In this document: positions 23,339-55,542 of the stretch, in pieces | How positions within the stretch are numbered: position 1 is the stretch's first letter | Layout: every line of letters begins with the position of its first letter | NCBI GenBank assembly: GCA_027972325.1 | Contig: JAPMOS010000009.1 | Coordinates: forward strand, 476,501-540,500 | DNA length: 64,000 nucleotides | From: Paratrimastix pyriformis | Taxonomy: Eukaryota; Preaxostyla; Paratrimastigidae | Reading direction: 5' to 3' | Position numbers and translations under genes: made by a program | The notes under the pieces: model-generated | What the model was told of the DNA's origin: nothing | Seen by the model: the letters and a program-made list of their open reading frames with translations, nothing else | The model's database searches: none

Positions 23339-26300
23339 ATGCAAGTTCCTGCAACTGCTTACGAGCCTCAACTCATACTCTCTTCGCCCCCGCGACTCCC
23401 ACCCGGTCCCCAGCCTCAGTTTCTTAATCTAGCTGTTGAGGCTGGCCAAGTTCCGTCGGCTGGGAAGGCGGACGAAGGGCAGGTTGCCATTGCCGCAACA
23501 CTCTCGGCCCGCGTCTTGGACCAGGTGACCGTTCAGCCGCACCTTGATCTCATTGCTCTTGTTGATACATCTCGGTTCGGAGTGCCCACCCAAAATGTTT
23601 TTCATCGTTCCCCCCCACCCGGCGTAGATCGATGTCGGGGGAAACCCTCAGTACCGGTCGGAGCAAGTTGATCAAGGTGAAAGCTTGCCTAGAACAGGTG
23701 CGGTACTTTTCGATCACATTTTTTTGACCCCCGACCGGCCACGGTAGGCCCTCTTATTTCTCCGGACCGGTGATCGCTTTTCTGTGATCCTCTTCGCCAA
23801 CAATGTCAAAGTTCTCTTCCCTCTCACGGAAATCACCGCCCTATCCAAGGTCCCTTTTTTCACCCCCGACTGCCACCACCCAGACCGACTTCCCCACTAC
23901 GCGGGCTCATCAACTCTCCGCCATGCTCCCCCCAGGTTGAGCTGGTGGAGAAGCTCTGCGACGAGATCGACCACCCCGACGGGGGCACCAACATCATGGG
24001 GGCACTGCAGGCGGGCCTGGAGGAGATCGCCCGGTCCACCATCGGCCCTGGCACCCCCCCGCGGTCACCGGGCTCATCGTCTGTCCTGTCGCCCCTCCTC
24101 CCCCACCCACACCCCACCATCACCAACAATCTCGACTTGGGTGCGGTTTGAAAGTGGCAGGAGGGAGGTGGGTTTTGAATGAGGGCAGGGAAGTATGGCA
24201 AGGCATTTTCCGGACCGTCCCCCGCCCACCCGACACTCATCTCCGTCTCCCCCACCACCACCACCACTCCACGCGCACCCGGGCGGGGGGCTCCATCCGT
24301 GCCGCCTCAGCCCGTCGGCCGTCCGGACGGCGCAGCCCGGGCGGATGGGCTCGATCTGGCTCTTCTCGGACGGGATGGACAGCCACGTCCGCCAGGAGAC
24401 CACCTTCATCGGCAACCGGGCCATCCACCACGCAGGCATCACCCTCAACGACGTCAGGTCCGCACGGGTGGCTCTGACCCACCTCCTCCCGTTCCTCCAC
24501 CTCACGCCGGCATCACCCACAACCATGTCCGCAGGGGTGGCTATGAGCCCGCCATCCGAACCCGCATGCACAGATTCAGGCACGCCCCCGGCCACCCACC
24601 CACCCGCTGGGAGATGGCATTTGGGGTCCTCATTCTTCGCTCCATCCTCTCCCGTCCTCTCCCGCGGCGCCCGTGTGCGCCTCCGGTGCGGGGTTGCTGT
24701 GGGGGGGCTGCGTGGCGGTGGGGACGCCCAGCTGGAAGGTTCGCGAGCTGCTGGGGAGCTTCGGGCCGCAGGTGCAGGAGGGCGTCACCATCCACACGTT
24801 CGGCTTCGGCAACGGCCACGACACGGTGGTGCTCTCGATGCTGGCCCAGGTGGGCCGCGGGTCGTACTTCTACGTCAGGGATGAGCGCGGTCCGTGCCCT
24901 GCCTGCCGCCCGGTCATTCCGAAGCCTCCCTGCGCCAGCACCCATCCCCTTTGGGCCTCCCTCCCCCCATGCGCCACCACACGCCCAGGTCGGTGGTCGA
25001 GGCGGCCTGTCCGTGGCCCAATCATCATCATCATCCCAGCATCGTCCTCGTCATCCGTGTGCCAATCTGTGGGCGGGTGGTGGCGTTGGGTGATGTGGGG
25101 GTGGCGGGGGATGCGGCGATGATGGCTGTCGGCCGTGGACAGACTTCCCGGCCCACTTCGCGACCTGCCTGTCGGCCCGCCTGTCGGCCGTGGCCAAGCG
25201 GGTCAGCATCCGCATCGTGGTCCGCCTCCCCGCCCCTGCCTGCCCCTGCATCCACCACCCCCCACCATCCACGTAACGCACGCCATCGCCTCATCGTCCA
25301 GTCGTCCTACTCAGCCACCACCATCATCAGCATCATCCTGTCATCATCATCATCATCACCCTGATCACCATCATCAGCATCAGCAACAGCAGCATCCAAT
25401 CATCATCATCATCACCATCATCATCAGCAGCAGCATCGCCATCATCATCATCGCCATCATCAGCATCATCATCATCCATCATCAGCATCACCCACCACCA
25501 TTCTTGTCCCATCCCCCCTCCAGCCGCAAAACTGCCGGGTGGCTCGGAATCTGCACCTGCTGCAGGCCGACCCGCACACGGTCGAGCTGGGCGACATGTA
25601 CAACGAGATGGTCCGCCACACGCCCCGTCACACGCCCCGTCACACGCCCCCGTCACACGCCCACGCCCACGCCCACGCCCACGCCCACGTCCACACGCCC
25701 GTGCGCCCCACACCTGGGGGTGTCGCCTCCGTGTCCTCATCATCCAACCCCCCCCCCCCCCCCCCCTCCTCCTCCTCCTCATCCCCCGTCATCGTGTGCC
25801 CTCCCCCAGCTGCAGACGGTGCTGTGGCAGGTGCAGGCGACGGGCCCCAACCCGCAGGTGACTGTGGTGGTGACCTGGCGCAACATCATCCAGGGCCGCG
25901 CCGCCACGGAGCGCCTCGAGCAGACCGTCGCTTTCGACCCGGCCGCCCTCCAGGTCCGCTCAGCGGCCAGCTGCACACCCCCTCCCCTCTGGTCATATGC
26001 CGGAGATGGGTGCCGAATAGGAAGGTGGGTGGGCGGAGATGTGTGTGTTATGCAGAGAGAGCAGTGGCTGCTGGGCATGTATGAGCCCACCCATCCACCT
26101 TTCTTCCTGTTTGACACACCCACCTTTCTTCCTGTTTGACACACACATCACCCACCCACCTTTCTTCCTGTTTGGCACGCCCATCTCCATCCGCCCACCT
26201 CCACCCACCGCCTTGCAGCCGCTGCCGCCCGAGATCCACGTCGAGTTCGAGAAGATCCGACGCAGCCTGGCGGCCGTCCTGGTCCGCGCCCCCGCCCAGC

Positions 26301-55200: not shown

Positions 55201-55542
55201 TGTCGACAACGGCGACCAAATCAACGGGGCCCCGGACGCGATCAATGTCGGGGATCGATGGGGCAGTAATTGTTGCGGCCACCAAAACCTGATGGTCATT
55301 TTCAGGCGCATCGGGGCGCGTTGGAAATGGGCCGTATGATAACTCCAGGCCGAGAAAGTCATTCATTTTGTTGGATAAGACTTCCTCGCAAGAGAAACGG
55401 AAAACAAGTGAATGAACTGAGGATGAAAGAAGCGCAAAAAGATCAAATAAGATAGCCTCGAGAGCCTTTTGGGTGATACATGTTCCATCCTGTCAGCGCC
55501 GACCTTCGTCCCGCCCGCGGCCCTGGACACTCCGCTGCCCAT
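40296..55542 (-). CDS. giant gene B: vWA domain, coiled region, one TM helix, long beta-repeat shaft, C-terminal tip
   Basis: Paralog of gene A on the opposite strand. Phased exons: 55542-55480, 55384-55022, 54973-54864, 54807-54676, 54472-54368, 54157-54105, then from 53969. Later coding blocks: about 53685-53590, 53330-53130, 52890-52755, 52550-52230, 52060-51920, 51640-51480, 51235-50940, 50690-50200, 50015-49800, 49510-49450, 49090-48979 (TM), 48815-48720, 48545-48470, 48290-48140, 47940-47520, 47115-46995, 46440-46275, 45810-45632, 44520-43390, 43268-42165, 41990-41640, 41425-41160, 40965-40296. MIDAS residues are present (DTSKSMS, GGTN, FSDGMD). The shaft is longer than in A. The N-terminus MGSGVSR fits the N-myristoylation pattern MGxxxS. 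The tip (from about [16 protein letters not shown] to the stop) is unlike that of A. Confidence 0.8.
41165..43268 (-). repeat. right arm of a large inverted repeat (gene B shaft)
   Basis: Reverse-complement counterpart of 36205-38405. The exon at 43268-42165 is about 200 bp longer than its partner, accounted for by one extra 204-bp shaft unit (five versus four TIxDVVLTRT units). Confidence 0.9.
44525..45310. repeat. TGGATGATGATGAC 14/11-bp minisatellite
   Basis: About 45 tandem units of GGATGATGATGACT with 11-bp GGATGATGACT variants, preceded by TGGTGATGATGA repeats, all within one intron of gene B. Not a CRISPR: units are contiguous, with no unique spacers. Confidence 0.95.
45311..45619. 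repeat. (GAT)n, GATGCT repeats and poly-G
   Basis: GAT run at about 45356-45412, GATGCT hexamers near 45490, and about 19 G at 45601-45619. Same gene B intron. Confidence 0.9.
45970..46172. repeat. (CAGA)n tetranucleotide microsatellite, about 50 copies
   Basis: Perfect run of about 203 bp followed by degenerate GGACAGAGCACA units to about 46260. Intronic in gene B; generates spurious Asp-Arg-Gln-Thr and Cys-Leu-Ser-Val frames. Confidence 0.97.
46860..46943. repeat. (AGC)n and AGCATC repeats
   Basis: CAG/AGC runs flanking CATCAG hexamers; intronic in gene B. Confidence 0.9.
48926..48956. repeat. poly-G run of 31
   Basis: G homopolymer on +, C on the gene B strand, directly after the TM exon. 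Other gene B runs: 53563-53580, 53831-53851 and 54314-54331. Confidence 0.95.
48979..49090 (-). other. transmembrane-helix exon of gene B
   Basis: Encodes [17 protein letters not shown] then [17 protein letters not shown], about 24 hydrophobic residues after a basic segment, equivalent in order and GFD context to the gene A TM exon. Confidence 0.75.
53401..53575. repeat. (ATC)n microsatellite with variants
   Basis: Pure ATC run 53401-53459, then CATCACCCGGTCATC units ending in a poly-G run. Intronic in gene B. Confidence 0.95.
54105..55271 (-). other. vWA domain of gene B with intact MIDAS
   Basis: Exons encode [86 protein letters not shown] and [18 protein letters not shown]. Every junction used has a matching junction in gene A, which supports both models. 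Confidence 0.88.

What the first reader, a model, noticed from the sequence alone, without database searches (positions are those of the whole stretch)
23339..55542. Convergent pair of giant vWA-TM-fibre genes: a possible undescribed cell-surface system
Two paralogs of about 15-16 kb meet tail to tail. Each joins a MIDAS-complete vWA domain (probably cytosolic; no signal peptide), a helical middle, a single TM helix and a very long Thr/Ser/Ala/Val repeat shaft ending in a distinct tip. I know no named eukaryotic family with a vWA domain inside and a tail-fibre-like shaft outside. The exon order is the same in both genes, so the architecture is not an annotation accident. Adhesion, prey capture or self-recognition are possible roles, all inference.
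Basis: partly seen in the sequence, partly recalled or inferred. Interest (0 to 1): 0.88.

Follow-up and report, generated by a model that had tools for sequence, protein, structure and literature searches.

The report
vWA proteins bearing giant surface fibres
A protist genome carries a small family of giant membrane proteins that seem to join an internal metal-binding vWA domain to a long external fibre with a changeable tip; no matching family turned up in the searches made, and what they do is still a guess.

Summary
Two convergent paralogs (23339-39342 +; 55366-40296 -) each encode, in order, a MIDAS-complete vWA domain, a helical middle, a membrane helix with basic residues on its N-terminal side, a Thr/Ser/Ala/Gly/Leu-rich repeat shaft and a tip that differs between the two. 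A third paralog on another contig (C474) repeats this order with a different 27-residue shaft repeat, so this is a family of at least three. No fourth member was seen, but those searches were of limited sensitivity. One metagenome fragment is the only outside relative found. Genome size and SUF genes suggest the free-living bacterivore Paratrimastix pyriformis (inferred).

Two further points. (1) Distal shaft exons of the pair are 96-99.7% identical (20 of 414 fourfold sites differ), while the introns between them have largely diverged: exon-confined homogenisation. (2) These exons form an inverted repeat enclosing both tips, so recombination between the arms would swap tips; no reads were available to test that.

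Best reading: type II membrane fibres for bacterial contact or adhesion with a cytosolic vWA. The order of parts is well supported. A single transcript, the fibre fold, the topology and the function are not shown.

The parts
23414..25219 (+). gene 1: vWA domain exons (MIDAS residues present); the start codon is uncertain, with ATG at 23339 a candidate
   Evidence: Pfam VWA 1.4e-14; paralog alignment; exon model
25524..28355 (+). gene 1: post-vWA and helical middle, including the motif MDELWRQALHTKQ shared with gene 3
   Evidence: exon model; paralog blastp and alignment
30884..30940 (+). gene 1: predicted membrane helix ICSLLALCILGWCLFLAAM, preceded by RYRRR
   Evidence: hydropathy
32464..32691 (+). 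gene 1: base of the shaft, with a motif shared with gene 3 (NADRI..NTLSF)
   Evidence: gene 1 against gene 3, E 3.8e-7 over 90 columns
33373..38641 (+). gene 1: repeat shaft (exons with introns between)
39017..39342 (+). gene 1: tip exon and stop
   Evidence: found once only in the genome
53893..55366 (-). gene 2: start [12 protein letters not shown] and vWA domain exons
   Evidence: Pfam VWA 3.5e-15; P0001 begins with a similar start
51476..53679 (-). gene 2: post-vWA and helical middle
48978..49034 (-). gene 2: predicted membrane helix [19 protein letters not shown]
   Evidence: hydropathy 2.72
47531..47940 (-). gene 2: base of the shaft
41154..46449 (-). gene 2: repeat shaft (exons with introns between)
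40296..40964 (-). gene 2: last shaft turns, tip and stop
   Evidence: weak Bactofilin match just upstream and in its first part
36190..38408 (+). left arm of the inverted repeat; exons 93-100% identical to the right arm in 120-column blocks, introns largely diverged
41152..43283 (-). right arm of the inverted repeat
38409..41151 (.). 2743-base segment between the arms; it holds both tips

Best explanation
The two genes, and a third on contig C474, encode giant type II single-pass membrane proteins. The N-terminus (vWA with a metal-binding MIDAS, then a helical region) stays in the cytosol. One helix acts as signal anchor. The C-terminus is a long beta-rich fibre that projects from the cell and ends in a variable tip. 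The most likely use, in a bacterivorous flagellate, is contact with or adhesion to bacteria: the tip binds, the shaft gives reach, and the vWA binds a cytosolic partner in a metal-dependent way to couple contact to uptake. Shown: order of parts, MIDAS residues, repeats, paralogy, near-identical distal shaft exons with different tips. Inferred: single transcript, topology, fibre fold, surface location, binding role.
For: Same order in 3 of 3 loci. The N-terminal ~450 residues are homologous across all pairs (E 6.2e-83, 2.3e-50, 8.2e-74). vWA above cut-off in all three. Basic residues precede the helix in each. N-glycosylation sequons lie mostly after the helix: gene 1 has 2 before and 8 after, gene 3 has 2 before and 6 after, gene 2 has 1 before and 4 after (not counting model run-off beyond its stop; significance not tested). 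Distal shaft resembles Bactofilin (E 3.1e-5) and a PHROG tail-fibre family (E 7.5e-4), both weak, whereas 0 of 6 shuffles (Pfam) and 0 of 7 shuffles (PHROGs) matched at E 0.1. Homogenisation confined to exons fits exons that are joined in one mRNA. The related metagenome protein P0001 starts directly with the vWA region and no signal peptide.
Against: No transcript, localisation or structure. Both AlphaFold models are poor (mean pLDDT 45.5 and 44.0, one sequence each), so a fibre fold is not shown. The Bactofilin match is below Pfam's cut-off. The tip has no relative in the protein search or in viral contigs. Other hydrophobic peaks occur in the models. Nothing tested here bears directly on adhesion.
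Confidence: 0.5

Rival explanations
1. Same topology, but the fibres are structural (a surface coat, flagellar hair or vane component) and not adhesins; the tips serve assembly or packing.
For: Long uniform repeats, low in charge and free of cysteine in the two cores measured, suit a structural filament. Near-identity of the distal shaft exons would suit co-assembly of the two products.
Against: Two neighbouring paralogs with nearly the same shaft keep unrelated tips, and gene 3 has another tip, which suits recognition better. A cytosolic MIDAS domain is unexplained.
Confidence: 0.22
2. The vWA part and the shaft part are separate adjacent genes in each locus, a conserved pair read here as one.
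For: No transcript evidence. The link between the parts is the weakest stretch of similarity (gene 1 against gene 2 around the helix: 23% over 317 columns, E 2.8e-5), and the models there are poor.
Against: Order and strand are kept in 3 of 3 loci on two contigs; exons with the genome's own donor type continue through the stretch; the helix lies between the two parts, next to a shaft base shared by genes 1 and 3.
Confidence: 0.13
3. The shaft stays inside the secretory system (ER, Golgi or vacuole lumen) as a scaffold, and the vWA acts on the cytosolic face.
For: A type II anchor gives this topology equally well; no retention or export signal was tested.
Against: The length of the repeats and the differing tips are easier to understand outside the cell (inference).
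Confidence: 0.08
4. Artefact: an assembly duplication or false gene models.
For: The window is full of microsatellites and my models contain false exons.
Against: vWA parts are only about 43% identical, tips differ, introns differ, a third divergent copy exists, and a metagenome relative exists.
Confidence: 0.04

Closest known systems
vWA domain superfamily (Pfam PF00092/PF13519/PF13768)
   Same: Domain matched above cut-off, MIDAS residues present. The profile's one PDB match is 4rck_A, 'Hypothetical membrane spanning protein', E 1.4e-4.
   Different: Known proteins that pair a cytosolic vWA with an external repeat fibre were not found.
Apicomplexan TRAP/MIC2 adhesins and integrins (recalled; one search listed reviews, seen as listing only)
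   Same: Single-pass surface proteins in which a vWA/I domain takes part in adhesion.
   Different: There the vWA is extracellular behind a signal peptide; here it is N-terminal, without signal peptide, on the basic side of the helix.
Phage tail fibres and tailspikes
   Same: Beta-rich repeat shaft with an exchangeable tip; one weak PHROG tail-fibre match (E 7.5e-4).
   Different: Membrane-anchored eukaryotic gene with introns; no chaperone (S74) domain reported by Pfam for the tips; trimerisation unknown.
Bactofilin (PF04519)
   Same: Short beta-helix-like repeats in the distal shaft (E 3.1e-5).
   Different: Below Pfam's cut-off (24.6 against 27.9 bits), and part of a far larger membrane protein.
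MYRF-type eukaryotic membrane proteins with a phage-like domain (recalled)
   Same: Eukaryotic protein joining a cytosolic domain, a helix and a tailspike-like part.
   Different: In MYRF the phage-like part is on the cytosolic side before the helix and self-cleaves; no S74 domain was reported here.
Invertible tail-fibre segment of phage Mu (recalled)
   Same: Alternative tips in opposite orientation between inverted repeats.
   Different: No recombinase or inversion seen here; two complete upstream genes instead of one.

Membership tests
vWA domain | Profile match above curated cut-off | tested here: met
   all three paralogs
vWA domain | Complete MIDAS (DxSxS, T, D; recalled) | tested here: met
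   invariant in 3 of 3
TRAP/integrin-type adhesins | Extracellular vWA behind a signal peptide | tested here: not met
   No hydrophobic N-terminus in the three models (highest 19-residue mean near the start 0.97, 0.25, 0.75); vWA lies N-terminal to the helix. Only a hydropathy test; the start of gene 1 is uncertain
Phage-type trimeric fibre | Elongated trimeric beta fold | not testable with these tools
Phage-type trimeric fibre | Sequence match to a tail-fibre family | tested here: inconclusive
   phrog_4549 E 7.5e-4 on the gene 1 distal part only, of 6 proteins given; 0 of 7 shuffles matched
Peptidase S74 / MYRF-like | S74 chaperone domain | tested here: not met
   Not among the Pfam matches of the three tips at E 0.1 and 0.5
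Bactofilin | Match above Pfam cut-off | tested here: not met
   24.6 and 16.3 bits against 27.9
Mu-type invertible tip cassette | Inverted repeats flanking alternative tips | tested here: met
   arms 36190-38408 and 41152-43283 in pieces of 94-99%, 2743 bases between the innermost pair
Mu-type invertible tip cassette | Both orientations present, and a recombinase | not testable with these tools
   No reads available; a recombinase was not sought

The most novel reading that the evidence does not exclude
The convergent pair is a tip-switching locus. The inverted repeat formed by the distal shaft exons encloses both tips, so recombination between the arms would invert the 2.7-kb segment and exchange the tips between two different vWA proteins, while homogenisation of the shaft exons (perhaps through cDNA) keeps the arms matched. 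That would be an invertible fibre-tip system, of the kind known from phages, in a free-living eukaryote.
Probability: 0.13. Interest if true: 0.87.

Novelty: new variant of a known kind. Interest (0 to 1): 0.56.

Why it matters
If the reading holds, a deep-branching anaerobic bacterivore has a family of membrane fibres built unlike the adhesins known from animals or apicomplexans: vWA inside, fibre outside. It would give a concrete handle on how such cells contact bacteria. The paired locus would also be a rare eukaryotic case in which shaft exons are kept alike while tips differ, with a layout that could swap tips.

Tried and rejected
Relatives. The tip was searched in proteins (2938 candidates, none at E 0.1) and in viral contigs (40 pattern matches, none confirmed). 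An earlier protein search of the tip was wasted: I gave the wrong reading frame, and it should be ignored. The vWA search gave 1 protein at E 0.001 among 870 candidates; P0001 was not found in viral contigs (95 pattern matches, none confirmed). The tip/shaft had no PDB match at E 1.

Further members. Weak genome hits were looked at on the 10-30 kb fetched: C344 (an ordinary vWA gene, no shaft seen), C16 (vWA-like part near FG-GAP-like sequence by eye, no Pfam test) and C112 (a low-complexity repeat, not a relative). Not examined: C79, C348, C24, C446, C190, C222. The searches are exon by exon and of limited reach: the shaft-base query of gene 1 found only itself and missed genes 2 and 3, and the Pfam VWA search (5 matches) missed genes 1 and 3. 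So three is a lower bound.

Structure. Both AlphaFold jobs gave low confidence.

Rejected: the viral origin first considered (no viral or phage match: each of limited reach); plain assembly duplication (see rivals).

Full report
Where the window lies. It is part of a eukaryote-like genome of 56,060,509 bases in 495 contigs, at C485:476501-540500. I infer Paratrimastix pyriformis. Table 1 of PMC10703272 (passages seen) gives 56,627,582 bp in 633 scaffolds and 60.94% G+C, and the paper says that Preaxostyla use a SUF pathway gained from bacteria (passages). SUFBD core matches lie on C222 in pieces (4 matches, best E 2.4e-41). Against: the window has about 63.8% G+C (mean of the 32 blocks) and 100 kb fetched elsewhere 66.1%, somewhat above the published mean. 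The SUFBD family is common in prokaryotes (14 of 14 controls). No named sequence was compared.

The two genes. Six-frame reading and paralog comparison gave matching fragments on opposite strands. A splice script with hand-picked seeds (60 of 64 located) gave models for gene 1 (+) and gene 2 (-). They contain false exons, for example eight one-codon pieces in the 52-bp repeat of gene 1, a poly-Ile piece in gene 2, and run-off beyond both stops. I use them only where paralogs, Pfam or open exons agree. Gene 1 ends at 39342 and gene 2 at 40296. The start of gene 2 ([12 protein letters not shown], 55366) is backed by the metagenome protein P0001, which begins MSNSALLSLELSYG. The start of gene 1 is uncertain.

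vWA. Pfam VWA matches at 1.4e-14 (gene 1), 3.5e-15 (gene 2) and 3.4e-10 (gene 3). MIDAS residues are invariant in the three.

A third member. A genome search with the gene 2 vWA gave 16 matches at E 0.1 on C485, C474, C344 and C16. The C474 locus, fetched in 10-kb pieces, shows vWA, a low-complexity charged stretch, a hydrophobic helix, and a shaft with a 2051-base exon of 27-residue repeats. The N-terminal parts align in every pair: gene 1 against 2, 37.6% over 479 columns (E 6.2e-83); gene 1 against 3, 31.8% over 469 (E 2.3e-50); gene 2 against 3, 36.4% over 448 (E 8.2e-74). Around the helix and shaft base the similarity is weak but present: gene 1 against 2, E 2.8e-5; gene 1 against 3, E 3.8e-7 (low-complexity filter off). 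Further searches named no fourth member, but one search also missed the known paralogs, so this is weak evidence.

Topology. The assigned helices have 19-residue means of 2.49, 2.72 and 2.37 and follow basic stretches (RYRRR; R/H in gene 2; SHRR), which under the positive-inside rule (recalled) puts the vWA in the cytosol and the shaft outside.

Shaft and tips. The gene 1 core (301 residues) is 23.7% Thr, 17.0% Ala, 13.7% Ser, 13.3% Leu, 10.7% Gly and 9.3% Val, with no Cys. Periods are 68/60 residues there and 27 in gene 3. The distal shaft gives weak matches to Bactofilin (E 3.1e-5 and 0.012, below cut-off), a tail-fibre PHROG (E 7.5e-4) and, for the gene 3 repeat, a PHROG of unknown function (E 2.7e-6). 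Of the shuffles used, 0 of 7 matched PHROGs and 0 of 6 matched Pfam at E 0.1. AlphaFold without an alignment gave beta-rich but poor models: 222 residues of distal shaft and tip, mean pLDDT 45.5, the first 50 residues at 60-72; 374 residues of shaft, 44.0. No fibre fold can be claimed from these.

Exon-confined homogenisation. Codons of the distal shaft exons are nearly the same in the two genes: nucleotide identity 96.0, 97.3, 99.7 and 97.4% in the four pieces compared, with 20 of 414 fourfold sites different (15 of 159, 3 of 84, 1 of 93, 1 of 78). The introns between them are not alike to that degree. Against 200 shuffles each, intron i scores within chance (22 against a shuffle maximum of 28), intron ii at the edge (33 against 33), and intron iii is clearly related (110 against 48) but only 79.9% identical over its best 139 columns. 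The vWA exons are old by comparison (about 43% identical in protein). One cause would be conversion through spliced cDNA; strong constraint on the exons or fast intron turnover after ordinary conversion are others. I cannot separate them. If cDNA was involved, these exons are spliced together.

Inverted repeat. The same exons form inverted repeats: 847 bases at 94%, 375 at 99% and 311 at 96%, the innermost with 2743 bases between. That segment holds both tips. Recombination between the arms would exchange them. This is a prediction from layout; nothing here shows that it happens.

Donor sites as an internal check. Of 60 located seed ends, 30 have GTC[CT]G within the 23 bases examined, against a mean of 3.7 (sd 1.9, maximum 10) at random places in 300 draws; GT[AG]AG occurs at 0 of 60 (random mean 0.5). 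The seeds were picked by hand, before the donor type was noticed. The genome's own U1 RNA fits this (see Noticed in passing), which supports the exon-intron reading of the genes.

Literature. Searches for the architecture listed no matching description; only listings were seen. They cover an open-access library, so this is not proof of absence.

How it may work. See Best explanation. Shown: order of parts, MIDAS, repeats, paralogy, shaft identity, inverted repeat. Inferred: one transcript, topology, fibre, surface, contact with bacteria, metal-dependent partner.

Verdict. A real and unusual protein family, filed under no known family as a whole. I rate it a new variant of a known kind (membrane-anchored surface fibres) because each part resembles something known and the function is not tested.

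Noticed in passing
U1 RNA loci L071-L078 (C212, C231, C24, C349, C441, C482, C495, C388); donors across both genes: The genome's U1 RNA copies begin AUACAGACCUUG in 8 of 8 read, where the Rfam consensus begins AUACUUACCUG. This changes exactly the bases facing positions +3 and +4 of the donor and fits the GTCYG donors found here: an apparent compensatory change of U1 and 5' splice sites. The U1 matches have E 3.7e-13 to 2.0e-10 but are below Rfam's cut-off (0 of 8; 9 of 14 prokaryote controls also gave some match at E 10, none over the cut-off). 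Donors with C at +4 pair less well with the new A. Two donors of this kind were seen by eye in an unrelated gene on C344. Searches listed no description; passages of PMC1501061 report A, U, G at +3 to +5 in the oxymonad Streblomastix. Possibly more surprising than the finding itself.
   Followed up: partly
C112:937875, C168:105483, C168:200061, C245:333992: Four identical-scoring U6 RNA matches over the cut-off (96.7 bits); their sequence could not be fetched, so pairing of U6 with the unusual donors is unchecked.
   Followed up: no
33271-33341 and 38907-38984: tRNA-Gly and tRNA-Glu genes lie within introns of gene 1, the second between its shaft and its tip exon.
   Followed up: no
3793-4905 (-): Open reading frame of 371 codons with Tc1/mariner-type transposase domains (DDE_3 E 4.3e-15).
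   Followed up: no
25322-25490 and many introns: CAT/ATC microsatellites fill introns here; a search with 24000-26000 hit about 200 places in the genome, chiefly through this repeat.
   Followed up: no
L039 (C16:90001-100000): A vWA-like stretch lies about 2 kb downstream of a stretch that looks to the eye like FG-GAP repeats (integrin-alpha-like); not tested with Pfam.
   Followed up: no
62638-63138 (+) and 14175-14759 (-): Neighbouring frames match Caroten_synth (E 1.2e-8) and a SEP domain (E 3.8e-6).
   Followed up: no
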